NCBI RefSeq assembly: GCF_004661485.1
Contig: NZ_PQVH01000012.1
Coordinates: 124,001-188,000 of the forward strand
Reading direction: 5' to 3'
Length of the DNA: 64,000 bases
Source: Methylotenera oryzisoli
GTDB taxonomy: Bacteria; Pseudomonadota; Gammaproteobacteria; Burkholderiales; Methylophilaceae
A program made the translations under genes and the position numbers. The notes beneath the pieces are model-generated. The model made no database searches and was not told the DNA's origin. It worked only from the letters and a program-made list of their open reading frames with translations. Numbering within the stretch: the first letter of the stretch is position 1; every line of letters begins with the position of its first letter. Positions 22,793-56,495 of the stretch are shown in pieces.

Positions 22793-22824
22793 ATTAAAAG
22801 GCCTGCAATTGCAGGCCTTTTAAT
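22793..22824. terminator. Bidirectional terminator between dnaJ and the CPA2 antiporter
   Basis: A 32-bp perfect palindrome with centre TGCAATTGCA, GC-rich arms (AAAAGGCCTGC) and A/T tracts on both sides gives a stem followed by T-rich sequence on either strand. It separates convergent dnaJ and the antiporter gene. Confidence 0.85.
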
Positions 22825-38215: not shown

Positions 38216-38255
38216 AAAACCTTTATAAGTGAAAACTTATAAAGGTTTTTTCTTT
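38216..38255 (+). terminator. Terminator of the tRNA unit
   Basis: A 15-bp stem AAAACCTTTATAAGT / ACTTATAAAGGTTTT with a GAAA loop, followed by T-rich sequence, starts 8 bases after the tRNA-Asp CCA. Confidence 0.88.
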
Positions 38256-47654: not shown

Positions 47655-47978
47655 CTAGGCCTGCTTAAGTACCCATTTCACAATCGTTTTAATATCATCA
47701 TCTTTTACCTGCGGGCTGTTAGGTGGCATCGCCATCTTGCCCCAAACACCACCACCACCGGCTTTCACTTTTGCAACCAAACGTGCTTCAGCAGCTGCAT
47801 CACCTTTATATTTAGTGGCTACATCTTTGTAAGATGGGCCAAGAATCGCATTCTGAATTCCGTGACACATCAAACATCCGCTCTTTTGTGCAAGACTTTC
47901 TGCCGGATCAGCAGCGCTAGCCGCTTGTGCACTCAAGAGCAATGCACTTAATAAAATTGTTTTCTTTAATAGAGACAT
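47655..47978 (-). CDS. Periplasmic class I c-type cytochrome
   Basis: A 107-residue small cytochrome c of the c551/c5 type. Signal peptide MSLLKKTILLSALLLSAQAASA, haem motif CLMCH (about 35-39) and the Met ligand in KMAMPPNSP (about 82-90). It starts 26 bases after the xoxF stop and ends in a shared terminator, so it is the likely partner electron carrier (XoxG-like role), though it is shorter than typical XoxG/cL cytochromes. That identity is inference; a general c551 is the alternative. Confidence 0.85.
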   Translation of the reverse strand: MSLLKKTILLSALLLSAQAASAADPAESLAQKSGCLMCHGIQNAILGPSYKDVATKYKGDAAAEARLVAKVKAGGGGVWGKMAMPPNSPQVKDDDIKTIVKWVLKQA

Positions 47979-48004: not shown

Positions 48005-49891
48005 TTACAGACTAAATACGTTCATTGCGCCACCACCAGGTGCAGCGTTGTATTTCACTAGATCTTTATAACCACCAGCAGCACCCAAGCCATCAGTGGA
48101 GTTAGTTAAACCTAGGTTCATTGCCACGCCTGCCCAGCCACCAATACCTGATAGCACGCCAACATATTGCTTACCTTTATTGCTATAAGTAATGGCATTA
48201 CCAACCACGCCTGAACCTACTTGGAATTTCCACAACTCTTTACCATTGTTGGCGTCCACTGCTTTAAACCAGCGATCCAATGTACCGTAGAACACTAGGT
48301 TAGTTGATGTAACCAGCGCACCGCCCCAAGCTGAGAATTGTTCTTTTTTATACCAAGCTGACTTGCCTTTTAAGCCGTCCCAAGCCATAAATCCACCCAT
48401 TACACCGTCTGGTCCTGGGAACATGGTGAGGGTTGAACCTACCCATGGCTGGCCTGCAACGTACTTAGATTCAACAGGCTCATATGTCATACATACATGG
48501 TTAAGCGGTACGTAGAACATGCCAGTCTTTGGGGAGAATGCAGCAGGCTGCTGGTCTTTTACCCCAAGTGCAGAAGGACAAATACCCTGTGCGTTGTAAT
48601 CTTGGTGGGTTGAGAATTTAGGGTCTTTATTTGGTATACCAGTTTTAAGGTCTACATTAAAAGCCCAGTTCACAAATGGATGCATTTTGTTGGCAACGAG
48701 CAATGAGCCATTGGTACGGTCAAATGTATATCCAAAACCATTACGGTCAAAGTGGCTAGCTAGTTTCTTACCTTTAGCTTCCCACAAAATGATTTCATTC
48801 ATGCCGTCGTAATCCCACTCGTCATGCGGTGTCATTTGATAACCCCATTTCGCCTCACCGGTATCGACATCACGTGCAAAAATAGTCATTGACCATTTGT
48901 TGTCACCTGGACGTACATCTGGGTTCCAAGTACTTGGGTTACCAGTACCGTAGTACATCAGGTTTAATTTTGGATCATATGAGTACCAACCCCAAGTCGG
49001 GCCACCACCGTTTTGCCAGCCGTCTTTTTTGGCTTGTGGTTTCAACCAGGTTTTAATGCCTAGGTCTTTTTCTGGGAACTTCAATTGGTCTTTAGGCAAA
49101 GCTTTGAATGAGCCGCCAATTTTATTGCCGCCGTTCACATCTTGGTAAAGTGATAACGCGCTGTAGTGCGGATTACCCTTATTGAAATCATTACCGATCA
49201 ATACGTCTTGGTCTGAACCTGTGCTGTATGCACGCCACACCAAAGCACCATCTTTGATGTTGTAAGCACTGATATAGCAGCGTACACCGTACTCGCCACC
49301 TGAACAGCCTGTAATCACTTTATCTTTAATCACGTGTGGTGCATTAGTGTTTGATGCGCCTTCTTTAGGATTTGTTACTTGTGTATCCCATAGTTTTTTA
49401 CCAGACTTAGCATCCAGTGCAACTAACAAACCATCATTCTGTTGCAAGAAAATCTTGCCTTCACCATAGCCTAAGCCACGGTTAACGTTATCACAGCACA
49501 GTAAAGCTTGTGTTGATGGGTCTTGTTTCGGGAAATATGACCAAAGGATTTTCTGGTTGTCATTAAGATCCAATGCGTAAACATTATTAGGGAATGCTGT
49601 ATGCACGTACATCACGCCATTCACTACTAGCGGCGCACCTTCATGACCACGGTTAACACCGGTTGCAAAAGACCAGGCAAGCTTCATGTTTTTCACATTG
49701 CCTTTATTAATTTGACTCAGACGGCTGTAACCAGAGTTGCTAAAATCTTTACGTGGGTGCACCCACTGACTATCATCCTTCATGAGTGTTGATAATTCAT
49801 CTTCAGCAAAAGCTGGAGTACTTAGCATGCCAAATAGGCCTGCACTTAAAGCTAGGCTAACGCCAAATTTACGTTTAAATAGATGATTCAT
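48005..49891 (-). CDS. xoxF: Lanthanide-dependent PQQ methanol dehydrogenase XoxF
   Basis: A 628-residue eight-bladed PQQ alcohol dehydrogenase. Signal peptide to about residue 29 (TPAFA), adjacent Cys132-Cys133 (the vicinal disulfide over PQQ), Glu200 and Asn318 as metal ligands, catalytic Asp360 in HDEWDYDGMNE, and Asp362 two residues later. Calcium-type MxaF has Ala at that last position; Asp marks lanthanide-type XoxF (established for the family). It oxidises methanol (and probably formaldehyde) in the periplasm. The ATG at 49891 is preceded by GGGGAT; a longer upstream frame would begin before the predicted transcription start, so it is rejected. The cytochrome gene follows in the same operon; no xoxJ gene is next to it. 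Confidence 0.95.
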   Translation of the reverse strand: MNHLFKRKFGVSLALSAGLFGMLSTPAFAEDELSTLMKDDSQWVHPRKDFSNSGYSRLSQINKGNVKNMKLAWSFATGVNRGHEGAPLVVNGVMYVHTAFPNNVYALDLNDNQKILWSYFPKQDPSTQALLCCDNVNRGLGYGEGKIFLQQNDGLLVALDAKSGKKLWDTQVTNPKEGASNTNAPHVIKDKVITGCSGGEYGVRCYISAYNIKDGALVWRAYSTGSDQDVLIGNDFNKGNPHYSALSLYQDVNGGNKIGGSFKALPKDQLKFPEKDLGIKTWLKPQAKKDGWQNGGGPTWGWYSYDPKLNLMYYGTGNPSTWNPDVRPGDNKWSMTIFARDVDTGEAKWGYQMTPHDEWDYDGMNEIILWEAKGKKLASHFDRNGFGYTFDRTNGSLLVANKMHPFVNWAFNVDLKTGIPNKDPKFSTHQDYNAQGICPSALGVKDQQPAAFSPKTGMFYVPLNHVCMTYEPVESKYVAGQPWVGSTLTMFPGPDGVMGGFMAWDGLKGKSAWYKKEQFSAWGGALVTSTNLVFYGTLDRWFKAVDANNGKELWKFQVGSGVVGNAITYSNKGKQYVGVLSGIGGWAGVAMNLGLTNSTDGLGAAGGYKDLVKYNAAPGGGAMNVFSL

Positions 49892-49975
49892 GTTGCATCC
49901 CCAAATTATAAAATTATTTAAGTTCTGTATTACTAATCTCATGCATTGAAACGATATTGGTAACAGTGCTAATAT

Positions 49976-49991
49976 TGCAACAGGCATGCCA
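49976..49991 (-). promoter_or_regulatory. Sigma54 -24/-12 promoter of xoxF
   Basis: On the minus strand, TGGCATGCCTGTTGCA matches TGGCACG-N4-TTGCA with a single mismatch and the required GG/GC spacing of 10 bases. The predicted transcription start is near 49965, 74 bases before the xoxF ATG. The sigma54 activator gene is divergently encoded 187 bases away. Confidence 0.8.
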
Positions 49992-50058
49992 ACACAATAA
50001 AAAGCCGAAAAATTAAATAAACTTTTATTGAAAATTTATTTAAAATCAACAAACTAGA

Positions 50059-50072
50059 ATTTTCGCGAAAAT
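50059..50072. promoter_or_regulatory. 14-bp palindrome in the xoxF/activator spacer
   Basis: ATTTTCGCGAAAAT is self-complementary and centred about 100 bases upstream of the predicted xoxF transcription start. It could be a secondary protein site; no role is proven. Confidence 0.4.
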
Positions 50073-50121
50073 GAATGCTTTTCCAGATTTGAGCGCATTT
50101 AACTTTTGATACTGTGTCAGA

Positions 50122-50153
50122 ATTGAACAGTTGTCACGTGACAGGTGTTCAAT
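50122..50153. promoter_or_regulatory. Candidate upstream activator sequence, 32-bp palindrome
   Basis: ATTGAACA-NN-TGTCACGTGACA-NN-TGTTCAAT is a near-perfect 32-bp dyad (only the two NN pairs break symmetry) centred about 173 bases upstream of the predicted xoxF start. It lies 25-56 bases before the activator gene, so it may serve both enhancer binding for xoxF and autoregulation. Confidence 0.7.
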
Positions 50154-50177
50154 TAATTTAAGGTAGTTAGCCAATAT

Positions 50178-52103
50178 ATGAGTAATGCTGCAACAGATAA
50201 AACGCCTGCCATCCTGCAAGCCAGAAAAGAATTTCTGAGCAATGGCAACGTAGAGCAAGGGGCGATTGCAGAAGCGATTGAACGCTCATGGCGACGCTGC
50301 CTGGCAAATGGGATTGATACAAACTCGCCACCCAGTTTAGAAGTAGTCACCGCACAGGAGTTGGCACTCAAACGCGAGCAAAACCAGCAGCTGCTTAAAC
50401 TCGCGCAACCAGAGATGGAAACGCTCAACGAGCAAATTGCTCACACCCGCAATGTAGTCATACTGACAGACGATGAAGGCGTGATTCTGCATAGTCTGGG
50501 TGGTCATCATTTTTTAAATGAAGCACAGCGTATCGCCTTATCTGCCGGCGCATCCTGGCATGAAGATCACAGGGGCACCAATGCAATTGGCACGGTGCTC
50601 ATTGAGCAGTCGGCACTCACCGTGCAAGGTGCTGAACACTTCATGGCATACCATCACTCGTTAAGCTGCTCAGCAGTACCTATTTTTGGGGCAGAGAATC
50701 AACTGATTGCCACACTGGATGTCTCTAATGACTCCAATATGTCACAGCAGCATACGCTGGCACTGGTGAAGATGTCTGCGCAGATGATTGAAAACCGCCT
50801 GTTCTTGGCAAGCCATCAAGGTGAGATTGCATTGCATTTCCATGCGCGCCCAGAGTTTATCGGCACTCTATGGGAAGGTGTGGCTATCTTTACTGACGGC
50901 GGTCAATTAGTTGCAACCAATCGCAGTGGCCAATTTCAACTCAGCTTAAACACTAGCAACGCAGCATCGCGACAAGGTATTCATTTCAACAATCTGTTTG
51001 ATATCCCGTTCACAAGCTTATTAAGGCAAATTGGCAGCACTGATAAATTAATTGTGCCCTTAAGATTAAACAATGGCGCGCGTATTTATGTGCAAGTTGA
51101 ACTACTACAGAAAAAACAACAGATTAGCGCCACGCCTCCTGTCGCTGTAAAAAGAACTAGCGCCGCCAATTTGGATTTACTCGATAGCGGCGATGCAAAA
51201 ATCTCACGCGCAGTCCAGCAAATCAAACAAGTGCTGTCGCGTGATATTCCTATCCTGATTCAGGGGGAAACCGGCGTGGGTAAAGAGCTGTTTGCACGGG
51301 CGATTCACGAAGCCAGTGCGCAGCACAAAGGTCCGTGGATTGCGGTGAACTGCGCTGCATTGCCCGAAGGTTTAATCGAGGCTGAACTATTTGGCTATGA
51401 AGAAGGCGCATTTACCGGCGCGCGCCGTAAAGGCAGCCCCGGTAAAATTGAGCAGGCCAATGGCGGTACTTTATTTTTGGACGAAATTGGCGACATGCCG
51501 CTCTCATTACAGGCACGTTTATTGAGAGTGCTGCAAGAGCGCACCGTGACCCCATTGGGCAGCACCAAAACCATCCCGGTCAATTTTTCATTGATTAGTG
51601 CGACCAATCTAAAACTGAAAGAAAAGGTCGAAGCTGGTGAGTTCCGCAGCGATCTTTACTATCGACTCAATGGCCTCAGTGTTGCACTACCGCCGCTACG
51701 TGAACGCTCTGACCTGCAAGCGTTGATTGATGTCATATTACATATTGAACAAGCTGGCACAGTAGAAATTACGCCTGAAGTGATTGGGATATTCCAGGCA
51801 CATTCATGGCCAGGCAATATCCGCCAGCTGCATAACGTGCTCAGAACCGCGATTGCACTGGCTGATGGCGAGGCAATCAGTACGCTGCATCTCACGCAAG
51901 ATTTTATTGATGAGATGTCATTAACCAAGCCAAGTTCGATTGCTGACAAAGCATCCAACACATTGGATTTAGATGACCTTACTAGCCAAGCCATCAGGCA
52001 AGCCATGCAAACTGAGGCAGGCAATGTTTCCGCAGTTGCCCGCCAGCTTGGTATTAGCCGCAATACACTGTATCGCAAACTTAAAGCGATGGGCATCGCT
52101 TAG
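50178..52103 (+). CDS. Sigma54-dependent transcriptional activator (AcoR-like)
   Basis: A 641-residue bacterial enhancer-binding protein. An N-terminal sensory region includes a GAF-like domain (about 60-220) and a helical linker; the AAA+ domain (about 345-560) has Walker A GETGVGKE, the sigma54-contact loop GAFTGAR (about residue 412-418) and Walker B GGTLFLDEIGD. The C-terminal Fis-type helix-turn-helix (GNVSAVARQLGISRNTLYRKL) ends the protein. AcoR-type proteins respond to small metabolites; here the inducer may be methanol-related or lanthanide-linked (inference). It is divergent from xoxF and shares a spacer with a sigma54 promoter and a palindrome. Confidence 0.93.
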   Translation: MSNAATDKTPAILQARKEFLSNGNVEQGAIAEAIERSWRRCLANGIDTNSPPSLEVVTAQELALKREQNQQLLKLAQPEMETLNEQIAHTRNVVILTDDEGVILHSLGGHHFLNEAQRIALSAGASWHEDHRGTNAIGTVLIEQSALTVQGAEHFMAYHHSLSCSAVPIFGAENQLIATLDVSNDSNMSQQHTLALVKMSAQMIENRLFLASHQGEIALHFHARPEFIGTLWEGVAIFTDGGQLVATNRSGQFQLSLNTSNAASRQGIHFNNLFDIPFTSLLRQIGSTDKLIVPLRLNNGARIYVQVELLQKKQQISATPPVAVKRTSAANLDLLDSGDAKISRAVQQIKQVLSRDIPILIQGETGVGKELFARAIHEASAQHKGPWIAVNCAALPEGLIEAELFGYEEGAFTGARRKGSPGKIEQANGGTLFLDEIGDMPLSLQARLLRVLQERTVTPLGSTKTIPVNFSLISATNLKLKEKVEAGEFRSDLYYRLNGLSVALPPLRERSDLQALIDVILHIEQAGTVEITPEVIGIFQAHSWPGNIRQLHNVLRTAIALADGEAISTLHLTQDFIDEMSLTKPSSIADKASNTLDLDDLTSQAIRQAMQTEAGNVSAVARQLGISRNTLYRKLKAMGIA

Positions 52104-52148: not shown

Positions 52149-52724
52149 ATGATAGGCATTTTACTGGCGGCTGGCTTTTCTCGCCGTTTTGGCCCAAGCA
52201 ATAAACTGTTACAGCCGATGGCGGATGGCCGCCCTATCGCACTAGCCTCGGCAGAAAATCTAATGCAAGCCATACCAACCTGCGTTGCCGTGGTAAGGCC
52301 AGAAAATACAACGCTAGCAGCATTATTACAACAAGCTGGTTTAACCGTATTTGCATGCAAAGAGAACAAACAAGAGATGGCGGATAGCTTATCTGCAGCG
52401 ATTCGCTTTTCAGCAAATTTCGAGGCAGCTAATCATGGGTTTGTGATTGCATTAGCCGATATGCCTTACATTCAGCCAGCGACGATCAGCATGGTTGCCA
52501 ATAGAGTCAATAGCAATGACTCTATCATCATTCCTACTTATCATGGGCAGCGTGGGCACCCAGTTGGTTTTGCTGCCCGATATCGCAGCGAACTAGAAAA
52601 CCTGCAAGGAGATGAAGGCGCACGCGCTATCGTCAAACGCTATGCCGATGCTGTTTGCCTGTTGCCGTGTGAGGATGCCGGCATTTTGGCAGATATTGAC
52701 ACACCGGCTGATTTAAAGCGCTAG
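52149..52724 (+). CDS. mocA: Molybdenum cofactor cytidylyltransferase-like (MocA/MobA family)
   Basis: A 191-residue nucleotidyltransferase that probably links CMP to molybdopterin for the adjacent Mo-hydroxylase. GILLAAGFSRRFGPSNKLLQP is the signature loop with the Lys; ALADMPYIQP holds the metal-binding Asp and Pro. It starts 45 bases after the activator gene on the same strand, so it may be co-transcribed with it, and is convergent with the XdhC-like gene. The context with an XdhC-like protein and Mo-hydroxylase supports MocA over the guanylyltransferase MobA. Confidence 0.8.
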   Translation: MIGILLAAGFSRRFGPSNKLLQPMADGRPIALASAENLMQAIPTCVAVVRPENTTLAALLQQAGLTVFACKENKQEMADSLSAAIRFSANFEAANHGFVIALADMPYIQPATISMVANRVNSNDSIIIPTYHGQRGHPVGFAARYRSELENLQGDEGARAIVKRYADAVCLLPCEDAGILADIDTPADLKR

Positions 52725-52735
52725 AAATTTAAACA

Positions 52736-53713
52736 CTAAGCGGCACAACTTACTTCGCGCGCCAAGCCTATCGTTGTTTGCTGCGCTCGCACCTGTATCA
52801 ACTCGGCAAGAATAGCCACGGCGATTTCTGCTGGTGTACGGCTGCCGATACGTAAGCCCACTGGCCCGCGCATGGTAGCAATTTCCGGCTCACTGAGATC
52901 GAACATGCGCATACGCTCACGCCGTTTTTCCTGATTTTTTTGCGAGCCTAATACCCCTACGTAAAACGCATCTGATTTTAACGCCTCAAGCAAGGCCATA
53001 TCATCAAGCTTGGGATCGTGCGTCACAGCCACTATGGCAGTATGCGTATCCGGCGCAATATCCAGCACCACATCATCCGGCATCCCATACACCCATGTTA
53101 CGCCATCCACATGCCATTCATCCCGAATCTCCGGGCGTGGCTCACACACCAGCACTTCAAAATCCAAGGCTTGCGCCATGCTAGCCAACGTTGCCCCGAG
53201 CTGATTAGCGCCAATAATGAGTAAGCGCCATTGCGGACCAAAATAGGTATGAAACCAATCGCCCTCGATGCGTGGCGCACCTTCAGGTAATACTTCTGCT
53301 AAAGTAATTTCACCAGTACTGATGCGGATTGAGCGCTTGGTGAGCTTTCTGTCTCGCAGATTCTGAACGATGGGTAACAATTGTGATGCATGCTGCAATG
53401 GCTCAACAAAAATCTGCAATCTGCCACCACAAGGGATTCTAAAGCGCTGCGCATCTTCACGACTAATGCCATATTCCATGATACTAGGCTGGGTCGGCAG
53501 TGTTTGATTGCGCGCTTTATCAGCTAAATCATCCTCAATACAGCCGCCGGATACCGAGCCGATTAAGTGCCCGTCATCTCGCACCACCAGCACAGCACCG
53601 GGCAAACGCGGGGCGGAGCCCCATGTTTGCACTACGGTAAACAAGTGTGCCTGATAGCCATGATTCAGCCAATCAAGCGCTCGCTCCAGTACTTCTAAAT
53701 CCGCAGACTTCAC
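52736..53713 (-). CDS. XdhC/CoxI-family molybdenum-enzyme maturation factor
   Basis: A protein of about 325 residues. The N-terminal XdhC_CoxI domain (about 1-95) has TVVQTWGSAPRLPGAVLVV and GSVSGGCIEDDL; the C-terminal Rossmann domain (about 155-290) has LLIIGANQLGATLASMAQ and ATHDPKLDDMALLEAL-like VTHDPKLDDMALLEAL. It inserts or sulfurates Mo-cofactor into the hydroxylase encoded immediately upstream. I chose the GTG at 53713, four bases after the stop of the large-subunit gene, rather than the longer start within that gene. Confidence 0.87.
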   Translation of the reverse strand: MKSADLEVLERALDWLNHGYQAHLFTVVQTWGSAPRLPGAVLVVRDDGHLIGSVSGGCIEDDLADKARNQTLPTQPSIMEYGISREDAQRFRIPCGGRLQIFVEPLQHASQLLPIVQNLRDRKLTKRSIRISTGEITLAEVLPEGAPRIEGDWFHTYFGPQWRLLIIGANQLGATLASMAQALDFEVLVCEPRPEIRDEWHVDGVTWVYGMPDDVVLDIAPDTHTAIVAVTHDPKLDDMALLEALKSDAFYVGVLGSQKNQEKRRERMRMFDLSEPEIATMRGPVGLRIGSRTPAEIAVAILAELIQVRAQQTTIGLAREVSCAA

Positions 53714-53717
53714 AACA

Positions 53718-55895
53718 CTAAGCCAGCTGGTTGCCAATCGGCAATTGACGGATACGCTTGCCCGTTGCCGCAAAAATGGCATTGGTCACTGCAGGTGCCA
53801 CTGGTGGCAAGCCCGGCTCACCTACACCGCCCATTTTCTCGGTACTTGGCACGATATGTACATCTACCTTAGGCATATCTTTCATACGCAGAACGAGATA
53901 ATCATGGAAGTTAGATTGCTGCACTTTACCCTCTTTAAAGGTAATTTCACTTTGCATAGCAGCACCCAAGCCAAACGAAATGGACGACTCCATTTGCGCT
54001 TTCAGCGAGTCTGGGTTCACTGCCAAGCCGCAATCGATAGCACACACCATACGATGCACTTTCACCTCACCCTGATTCACAGACACTTCTGCCACTTGCG
54101 CAACAAAACTGCCAAAGGACTCATGTACTGCAATCCCGCGATAAACACCTTTAGGCAAAGGCTTGCCCCACTCCGCTTTTTCAGCAGCCAGATTAAGCGC
54201 AGCTAAATGACGCGGATGACCCTTAAGCAATTCACGGCGATAATCCAATGGATCTTTATTTGCAGCATGCGCAAGCTCATCAATCAAACTTTCCATTACA
54301 AATGCAGAGTGGCTATGTCCAACGGACCGCCACCAAAGCACAGGAATGCTCGCCTTCACCGTATGTAAACTCACATGATAGTTAGGAATGCTTTTCAAAT
54401 AGGGCGAGTCAGCAATGCCTTCTACCGAAGTCGCATCAACCCCGTTTTTAATCATAAATGCTTCAAATGGCGTGCCTAACATAATAGACTGCCCCACCGT
54501 CACATGCTCCCAAGCCACTGGGGAACCATCAGCACTCACCCCAACTTTAGCTTGATGCAAATACATTGGACGGTAATAACCGCCATGCACGTCATCCTCA
54601 CGGCTCCAAACCGTTTTTACCGGAACCCCTGCTGCCTTGGCCACTTGCACCGCTTCAGATACAAAGTCTGCTGCCGGATTGGCACGACGGCCGAAACCAC
54701 CACCAAGAAACAAGGTGTGAATTTTGACTTGCTCAGGCTTAAGGCCAAGTATTTTTGCCGCCGCCTGCTGGTCTGTACCCTGCATTTGTGTGCCGGTCCA
54801 GATTTCACATGCGTCTTTATCAATACGCACTGAACAGTTTAGCGGCTCCATCGGCGAGTGTGCCAAATATGGCAGTGCATATTCGGCCTCTATAGATTTT
54901 GCCGCCTTGGGTAACTCGGTTTTACTGTCACCAAGTTGCGCAGCGACTAAACCTGGTTTAGTCGCCAACGCTCTGTATTCTGTGAGCATCACAGCAGAAT
55001 CTAAATTTGCATTAGGTCCTAAATCCCATTCCACTTTAAGTGCATCACGCCCCTGCTTTGCTGCCCAGTAATGATCCGCAATCACAGCCACGCCAGTCGG
55101 CACCTGCACGACATTGCGCACACCTTTAATTTGCTTAGTCGCGCTGGCATCAAACGATTTCACCGTGCCACCAAACACTGGCGAGCGTGCCACCATGGCG
55201 GTCATCAAGCCATCAAAATGAATATCCTGACCAAACACTGCGGTGCCATTGATTTTCTCTGGGCCGTCTAAACGCTTGGTCGCTTTACCAATCACTTTCC
55301 AATCTTTAGGGTCTTTCAGTACAACTGCTTTAGGTGTTTCTAATTTAGCTGCAATCTCTGTCAGCTCACCGTAGCTAACCTTAGTGTCACCACTAATTAC
55401 AAATCCGTTTTCAGTTTTCAGGCTTTCTGCAGCAACACCTAATTTCTCAGCAGCTGCGCCAATCAATAACAAACGCGTCAAAGCGCCGGCTTGACGGTAG
55501 CGGTCAAACTCAGACCAAGTAGTAGAAGAGCCACCAGTGATTTGTATGCCATACGCGGTGTGTATGTAAGCAGGTGCAGCGGCAGCATGCTCAACTTTAA
55601 TCTTGCTCCAGTCGGCATCCAGCTCTTCTGCAATCAGCATAGGCAATGTCGTCCAGATGCTTTGACCCATTTCACTATGGGCGAGCATCACCGTAATCGT
55701 GTTATCCGTACCAATACGCAAAAAAGCATTTGGTTCAGGGAACTTAGGTGCTGCTGCTCCAGCATTATCTTGTGCTGCACCCGGCATTAAAAAGCGTTTA
55801 GCTGTGGGGATAGAGAAAGCAATCACCAGCCCGCCAACCACAAGTGCAGAGGCTTTCAGGAAAGTACGTCTTGAAATATTTAAAGGGGAGTTCAT
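53718..55895 (-). CDS. Molybdopterin-binding large subunit of a Tat-exported xanthine-oxidase-family hydroxylase (IorB-like)
   Basis: A 725-residue protein of the isoquinoline 1-oxidoreductase/aldehyde oxidase type. A Tat signal is at the N-terminus ([10 protein letters not shown], residues 9-18) with a hydrophobic stretch to about 32. Mo-cofactor-binding and substrate motifs include [14 protein letters not shown] (about 395-408) and the catalytic Glu in [13 protein letters not shown] (about 695-707). Enzymes of this class oxidise aldehydes or N-heterocycles and pass electrons to a small [2Fe-2S] subunit. Substrate unknown; periplasmic aldehyde oxidation is possible. Follows the small-subunit gene by 12 bases. 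Confidence 0.87.
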
Positions 55896-55906
55896 GTGAT
55901 GGCTCC

Positions 55907-56365
55907 TTAAGCTAGCTTAGTGGCAGCAGCATGGATCGCTGCACGAATACGCGGATAAGTACCGCAACGACAGATATTCCCGCTCATTGCCGCATCAATA
56001 TCAGCATCGGTAGGTGTTTGATTCGTCGTGAGCAAAGCTGTCGCCGCCATAATCTGGCCTGACTGACAGTACCCACACTGCACAACATCAATTTCACTCC
56101 ACGCCGCCTGCACCGCTTGACCCACTTTATCATTTTGAACATCTTCAATCGTCACGATTTTCTTACCGACCGCGGCTGAAACTGGCGTAATACATGCGCG
56201 TGTAGGCTGGCCATCAACATGCACCGTACATGCCCCACATTGCGCCATACCACAGCCAAACTTGGTACCGGTAAGATGCATCACATCTCTTAATGCCCAT
56301 AAAATCGGCATATCATCAGATACATCCAGCTGCTGTTCTTTACCATTGACATTCAAAGTAATCAT
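55907..56365 (-). CDS. [2Fe-2S] small subunit of the Mo-hydroxylase (IorA-like)
   Basis: A 152-residue iron-sulfur subunit with two clusters: a plant-ferredoxin-type motif [17 protein letters not shown] (about 40-56, Cys41, Cys46, Cys49 plus Cys about 61) and a C-terminal all-helical cluster motif [10 protein letters not shown] and [12 protein letters not shown]. It passes electrons from the Mo site, probably to a cytochrome. The ATG at 56365 follows GAGGG by 8 bases and is chosen over an in-frame GTG three codons earlier. Heads the ior-like operon; divergent from the LysR gene. Confidence 0.9.
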
Positions 56366-56495
56366 GATGGTCACCCTCTAATCTGTTGTTTTAATATTGA
56401 TTTTTATAAACTGATGCAAGAACTACCGTTTTAACACTTATCACAATTCATGCAAAAATAGCACTATCGCACACTGTTAGCTATCATTATATGGA

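What the first reader, a model, noticed from the sequence alone, without database searches (positions are those of the whole stretch)
49892..50177. xoxF appears to be sigma54-controlled by a divergent enhancer-binding protein
The 286-base spacer holds a 16-base match to the -24/-12 sigma54 promoter (one mismatch, exact GG/GC spacing) pointing at xoxF, a 32-bp near-perfect dyad about 173 bases upstream of the predicted start, and a divergent AcoR-like activator with an intact GAFTGAR loop. All parts of a sigma54 switch are present. The xoxF regulators I know of are two-component systems (MxbDM, MxcQE) and the lanthanide switch; control by a sigma54 activator would be a different logic for a lanthanide methanol dehydrogenase.
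Basis: partly seen in the sequence, partly recalled or inferred. Interest (0 to 1): 0.8.

Follow-up and report, generated by a model that had tools for sequence, protein, structure and literature searches.

The report
Sigma54 switch in front of xoxF
In the methanol-eating bacterial family Methylophilaceae, one copy of the gene for the rare-earth-dependent methanol enzyme sits behind a conserved sigma54-type promoter next to its own predicted activator gene, which may explain why this copy is switched differently from its sister copies.

Summary
Between xoxF (48005-49891, minus) and a divergent GAF/AAA+/Fis activator gene (50178-52103, plus) lie a -24/-12 site at 49976-49991 (one mismatch) and a 34-bp near-perfect dyad at 50121-50154. 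In all 46 Methylophilaceae loci scored where xoxF stands divergently beside such an activator, a -24/-12 site with GG and GC intact (0-2 mismatches) lies 60-122 nt before xoxF; in 60 hand-picked xoxF promoters of the family without that neighbour, none has one. A 17-18 bp operator (TGTGTCA-N3-TTGAACAG; core YTGT-N11-ACAG), about 100-140 nt upstream of the -24 box, follows the same pattern, also in a second xoxF/activator pair in Methylobacillus. rpoN is present. The activators form a clade inside AcoR-like regulators, some of which neighbour aldehyde dehydrogenases. The gene probably corresponds to Mmol_1770 (XoxF4-2), reported as regulated differently from the other copy. The xoxF regulators named in the passages I read are two-component systems; one review's figure legend lists a GAF-type sigma54 regulator among xox clusters. 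The inducer is unknown; nothing was tested at the bench.

The parts
48005..49891 (-). xoxF (XoxF4-type, probably the Mmol_1770/XoxF4-2 type) lanthanide methanol dehydrogenase gene, 628 aa from the conserved start
   Evidence: Best PDB matches are XoxF; DYD motif at residue 360; 99% identical to the copy in G109
47655..47978 (-). small cytochrome c gene directly downstream of xoxF (xoxG-like)
   Evidence: Pfam Cytochrom_C; directly behind xoxF in 4 of the 12 long neighbourhoods that hold the pair: L121, L123, L130, L131
49976..49991 (-). -24/-12 sigma54 promoter TGGCATGCCTGTTGCA, predicted start 49965
   Evidence: conserved in 46 of 46 activator-linked loci scored
50113..50130 (+). conserved operator TGTGTCA-N3-TTGAACAG, the putative activator binding site kept across genera
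   Evidence: Gibbs motif, scored on held-out and paralogous loci and on controls; the only exact copy in the genome
50121..50154 (.). 34-bp near-perfect dyad overlapping the operator, perhaps a second site for the same activator; lies 24-57 bases before the activator start, so it may also serve autoregulation (inference)
   Evidence: found only in Methylotenera loci
50044..50056 (+). weak IHF-like site (one mismatch), not significant here, but exact 53-65 nt before the -24 box in 14 of 46 relatives
   Evidence: the place in the window was read
50178..52103 (+). AcoR/DhaR-like sigma54 enhancer-binding protein gene (GAF, AAA+ with GAFTGA, Fis-type HTH), 641 aa
   Evidence: homologues (orthologues and nearer paralogues) in 53 of 187 family genomes

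Best explanation
The spacer is a sigma54 switch for one xoxF4 copy. The divergent activator binds the operator/dyad cluster about 150-190 bases upstream of the start, senses an unknown signal through its N-terminal GAF domain (most likely an alcohol, an aldehyde or a metabolite of methanol), loops to RNA polymerase-sigma54 waiting at 49976-49991 and opens it by ATP hydrolysis. It thereby switches on xoxF and the small cytochrome gene behind it. Shown: the parts, their spacing, and their joint conservation and joint absence across the family. Inferred: binding, activation, looping, cotranscription, the inducer. Possible: the site cluster, close to the activator's own start, also feeds back on the activator gene.
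For: Divergent xoxF-activator pairs: 29 of the 30 best-scoring activator loci (L010-L039; in L024 the contig ends), 12 more of the main type and 5 of a second type. The -24/-12 site is in 46 of 46 (6 with no mismatch, 30 with one, 10 with two), 60-122 nt before xoxF, and in 0 of 60 xoxF promoters without the neighbour. Operator score: 16 of 16 held-out main-type loci (12.2-34.2 bits, several near-copies of training loci) and 5 of 5 second-type loci (14.5-26.1 bits, always 98 nt from the -24 box), against at most 7.3 in the 60 controls. In G177 an xoxF has no activator gene in the 2.3 kb upstream but keeps an exact -24/-12 site and an operator match. Of the 14 window genes sought in twenty long neighbourhoods, xoxF is beside the activator in 12; the molybdenum enzyme genes recur only in G109. 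rpoN: 176 of 187 family genomes, including the window's own and all 53 with an activator homologue (lists compared). xoxF-linked activators fall in one clade of 35 rows with support 100/97, one row of which (L135) has no xoxF beside it. Published expression: mmol_1770 raised 4-6 fold and msip34_0016 100 fold under in situ conditions compared with laboratory cultures (PMC3728764, passages).
Against: No transcript start, binding or mutant data. The 46 loci are related, so they are not 46 independent tests; they span seven numbered genera of the 24 in the family. The controls were hand-picked. In G055 the main-type activator persists without xoxF (L135), and two of the 41 main-type activators show an internal stop. 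Ten sites have two mismatches. IHF-like sites are exact in only 14 of 46. The operator search found no further convincing target in the genome. The M. versatilis homologue m301_1208 is reported as very lowly expressed (PMC3728764), so the switch need not be on in the laboratory. A weak sigma70-like match on the minus strand (49942-49913) cannot be excluded as a basal promoter.
Confidence: 0.88

Rival explanations
1. The activator chiefly controls another neighbour (the molybdenum aldehyde oxidoreductase cluster 52149-56374) or itself, and its closeness to xoxF is incidental.
For: mocA-like, xdhC-like and the two oxidoreductase genes stand next to it in the window; some AcoR-like relatives neighbour aldehyde dehydrogenases.
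Against: In the twenty long neighbourhoods mocA and the oxidoreductase genes recur beside the activator only in G109, whereas xoxF is there in 12; the -24/-12 site points at xoxF in every pair scored.
Confidence: 0.05
2. xoxF is mainly driven by a sigma70 promoter under a two-component system or lanthanide switch; the sigma54 site is a minor, condition-specific second promoter.
For: Two-component systems are implicated in the lanthanide switch of other xoxF genes (PMC11845868, passages); a 9-of-12 sigma70-like match lies at 49942-49913.
Against: Promoter-like matches were 10 against 5.5 (sd 2.7) in shuffles of that region, so a single one carries little weight; the sigma54 site and operator are the elements seen to persist across genera. 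Conservation of a sigma70 promoter was not tested.
Confidence: 0.15
3. The -24/-12 match and the dyad are chance or shared ancestry without function.
For: Matches with two mismatches are common in the window; close relatives share much of the spacer.
Against: Most of the spacer looks diverged between genera while site, operator and spacing persist (by eye), and both are absent from 60 xoxF promoters of the same family.
Confidence: 0.02

Closest known systems
AcoR/DhaR-type sigma54 activators (GAF, AAA+, Fis HTH)
   Same: Domain order; the NCBIfam match that spans the whole protein is DhaR (below its cut-off); the only PDB match to the sensor half is DhaR, 4lrx; several relatives stand beside aldehyde dehydrogenase genes.
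   Different: Target is a PQQ lanthanide methanol dehydrogenase; not a DhaR by NCBIfam's score; inducer unknown; own clade with xoxF as neighbour.
MmoR, sigma54 activator of soluble methane monooxygenase
   Same: A sigma54 regulator of a C1 oxidation step, with a -24/-12 motif before mmoX and a sensor related to the GAF group, as described in passages read (PMC5874634; PMC6778391).
   Different: Other enzyme and other taxa; not compared by sequence here.
Lanthanide switch regulators MxbDM, MxcQE, MxaY/MxaB, PedS2/PedR2
   Same: They are implicated in control of mxaF/xoxF-type or ped alcohol dehydrogenases (review passages, PMC11845868).
   Different: Two-component systems; Pfam finds neither receiver nor kinase domain in the present regulator.

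Membership tests
sigma54 (-24/-12) promoter | GG and GC at the right spacing, near TGGCACGN4TTGCW | tested here: met
   the consensus is also printed in PMC5874634
sigma54 (-24/-12) promoter | rpoN in the genome | tested here: met
   G000:C20:130196-130669, E 2e-67
sigma54 (-24/-12) promoter | transcript starts about 12 bases after GC and depends on RpoN | not testable with these tools
   no expression data in hand
AcoR/DhaR-like enhancer-binding protein | GAF sensor, AAA+ with Walker A/B and GAFTGA, Fis HTH | tested here: met
DhaR (NF008485) | score above the curated cut-off | tested here: not met
   316.4 bits against 551
XoxF methanol dehydrogenase | closest to solved XoxF; DYD motif (its role as metal-site mark is recalled) | tested here: met
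   lanthanide dependence itself was not tested here
XoxF4-2 (Mmol_1770 type) | orthology to Mmol_1770 with the small cytochrome gene beside it | tested here: inconclusive

The most novel reading that the evidence does not exclude
Much of a bacterial family uses a dedicated, substrate-sensing sigma54 activator, recruited from regulators linked to aldehyde dehydrogenases, to switch particular xoxF4 copies. One lanthanide methanol dehydrogenase would then be under carbon-signal control, apart from or on top of the lanthanide switch, and this would underlie the reported divergent regulation of xoxF copies.
Probability: 0.6. Interest if true: 0.65.

Novelty: new variant of a known kind. Interest (0 to 1): 0.58.

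Why it matters
XoxF genes of Methylophilaceae are among the most highly and most differently transcribed genes in methane-fed freshwater communities, and published transcriptomes report that copies in one genome follow different rules without, in the passages read, naming a regulator (PMC3728764, PMC5723320). This locus offers a deletable regulator, a promoter and an operator, and a species (M. mobilis) in which xoxF mutants already exist (PMC6028718). In ten searches of the held open-access library I saw no report of an xoxF under sigma54.

Tried and rejected
Control of the neighbouring molybdenum oxidoreductase cluster was considered and set aside because, of the long neighbourhoods fetched, only G109 keeps it. 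An IHF site as a general part was tested and is not general: exact in 14 of 46, and not significant in the window. A wider regulon in the own genome was sought with the operator pattern: one exact copy (here), 3 with two mismatches, 59 with three, in all 63 against 51 for the reversed control, so no further targets are claimed; the genes at those places were not looked at. The long dyad as the conserved element was rejected: in 29 spacers it came out as the best inverted repeat in 7, all Methylotenera; L012 has it too but another repeat scored higher. Of the 60 activator matches listed, 46 are pairs scored, 1 ends its contig (L024), 7 have no xoxF beside them (two copies in G055, of which one was looked at in full length; G177 twice; G034; G181; G185), and 6 of 49-51% identity were not looked at (G051:C1, G183, G039, G035, G186, G182). 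Activator homologues outside the family: 22 loci fetched (L144-L165), flanks of at most about 1.5 kb; 20 of 22 show no XoxF-like match there, two have a distant PQQ dehydrogenase (L145, L146; 39% and 35% identity). Neighbours of the 80 named loci were not analysed; they served for names only. Literature: 10 searches; passages only were read of PMC6028718, PMC6778391, PMC12403871, PMC5874918, PMC3728764, PMC4109929, PMC11845868, PMC12997753, PMC5874634 and PMC12482762, and passages plus part 1 of section 11 of PMC5723320; other listed papers were seen as listings. One review legend (PMC11845868) lists a GAF-modulated sigma54 regulator and a GGDEF gene in its xox cluster figure, whose species include M. 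mobilis JLW8; the figure itself was not seen. Papers PMC3650538 and PMC5240692 were not held.

Full report
The window lies in a genome of 2,664,030 bases (G000) whose genus includes a named Methylotenera record: the contig length of G110 (2,803,787) equals that of Methylotenera mobilis 13. By the same comparison G057, G056 and G058 are Methylobacillus gramineus, M. glycogenes and M. rhizosphaerae, G050 is Methylovorus sp. MM2 and G065 Methylophilus sp. 42. The window organism is therefore taken as a Methylotenera (inference).

Observation. The gene at 48005-49891 encodes a XoxF: the best solved matches are XoxF chains 6oc5 and 6dam, and the DYD motif is present. An upstream in-frame start at 49987 exists, but it lies before the predicted transcript start 49965, and the nearest relatives align from 49891. 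The divergent gene encodes a GAF, AAA+ and Fis-helix protein with Walker A, GAFTGA and Walker B intact. On its own the -24/-12 match is unusual but not compelling.

Relatives. An activator homologue was found in 53 of 187 family genomes at E of 1e-100 or less, 60 matches in all; these include paralogues that do not neighbour xoxF. Of the 30 best loci fetched, 29 have xoxF divergent within the flank; in L024 the contig ends. With 12 more main-type loci and 5 loci of a second activator type fetched, 46 divergent pairs were scored: 46 of 46 have a -24/-12 site with GG and GC intact (6 with none, 30 with one, 10 with two mismatches) 60-122 nt before xoxF. The fragment of L024 also has one (one mismatch; L140). 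Of 60 xoxF upstream regions of the same family without the activator beside them (fetched), 0 have a site with two or fewer mismatches; five have three mismatches, 176-357 nt away. The 60 were chosen by hand from the listed rows. Of the 42 xoxF rows of at least 80% identity, 39 were shown to have the activator beside them, 1 does not (G177:C9, L053) and 2 near contig ends were not fetched (G184, G080). L053 nevertheless carries an exact site and an operator of 21.8 bits, though its shuffles reached 14.4; that genome has two activator homologues elsewhere.

Operator. Gibbs sampling on 25 main-type spacers gave TGTGTCA-N3-TTGAACAG, core YTGT-N11-ACAG, 97-139 nt from the -24 box in 24 of 25; the other (L036) was placed elsewhere, though a TTGT-N11-ACAG stands in that spacer by eye. 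Some training rows depart from the core (for instance L028). Held-out main-type loci scored 12.2-34.2 bits (16 of 16, several near-copies of training loci), second-type loci 14.5-26.1 (5 of 5; their shuffles at most 7.5), the 60 controls at most 7.3. In a second set built with full genes, 19 promoters without the activator, several of them the same promoters as in the 60, scored at most 5.8 and had no site under three mismatches. Weaker matches also occur beside some activators outside the xoxF clade (L149 15.8, L163 16.5 bits), so the operator may be older than the link to xoxF.

Descent. The activator tree (63 rows) puts the xoxF-linked activators of both types, with one orphan (L135), in one clade (100/97); the next branch out is L133, beside an aldehyde dehydrogenase gene, and two further family genes (in G181 and G185) also neighbour aldehyde dehydrogenases. 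The XoxF tree (36 rows) shows the main-type clade (91/97, short of the tool's star), the Methylobacillus clade with the second activator (100/100), a small clade without activator that groups with it (82/86), and a large clade without activator (15 rows, 100/100) that holds the other close xoxF of this genome. Whether the two linked clades reflect one pairing or two is not settled by these trees.

Neighbourhood. Fourteen window genes were sought in twenty long neighbourhoods. xoxF is beside the activator in 12; the small cytochrome is directly behind xoxF in 4 of these (L121, L123, L130, L131) and on the other side of the activator in 2 (L127, L136); mocA and the molybdenum oxidoreductase genes recur only in G109 (L121). 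Genes not present in the window were not looked for. rpoN was found in 176 of 187 genomes, among them all 53 with an activator homologue.

Literature (passages unless stated). PMC3728764 reports mmol_1770, with cytochrome gene mmol_1769 beside it, raised 4-6 fold in situ against laboratory cultures, a homologue msip34_0016 raised 100 fold at a relatively low level, and m301_1208 very low. PMC4109929 names the Mmol_1770 and Mmol_2048 types. PMC6028718 names them XoxF4-2 and XoxF4-1 and notes lower expression of the former. PMC5723320 (passages and section 11, part 1) reports xoxF copies responding to nitrogen source, methane and oxygen in different ways. PMC11845868 describes two-component regulators and lists a GAF-modulated sigma54 regulator in the legend of its xox cluster figure. 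PMC5874634 describes the sigma54 control of methane monooxygenase by MmoR and prints the -24/-12 consensus. None of the passages read assigns a sigma54 regulator to xoxF.

Mechanism and limits. The most likely working is sigma54 activation of xoxF and its cytochrome by the divergent protein bound about 150-190 bases upstream. What it senses is not shown; kinship with aldehyde dehydrogenase-linked regulators points to an alcohol, aldehyde or related metabolite (inference). Lanthanide sensing by this protein is neither supported nor excluded.

Noticed in passing
L135 (G055:C1:943030-944901) and G055:C1:1086062-1087933: Main-type activator without xoxF beside it (L135), and a second copy with an equal score 143,032 bases further on; at L135 the operator score is still 20.3 bits but the best promoter match has 4 mismatches.
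   Followed up: partly
L053 (G177:C9:51500-54100): xoxF that keeps an exact -24/-12 site and an operator match although no activator gene lies in the 2.3 kb upstream; a homologue that might act in trans stands elsewhere, beside an aldehyde dehydrogenase (L133).
   Followed up: partly
L137, L138, L139: Activator homologues of the same family, L137 and L139 beside aldehyde dehydrogenase genes (L138's neighbour was not identified), each with an AGGCACG-N5-CTGCT-like site (two mismatches) 149-182 nt from the activator start.
   Followed up: partly
window 52149-56374: MocA-like, XdhC-like and two-subunit molybdenum/iron-sulfur oxidoreductase genes next to the activator; of the long neighbourhoods fetched only G109 (L121) has them there.
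   Followed up: partly
window 22793-22824 and 38217-38248: Two other strong 32-bp palindromes (16 of 16 and 14 of 16 pairs), not examined.
   Followed up: no
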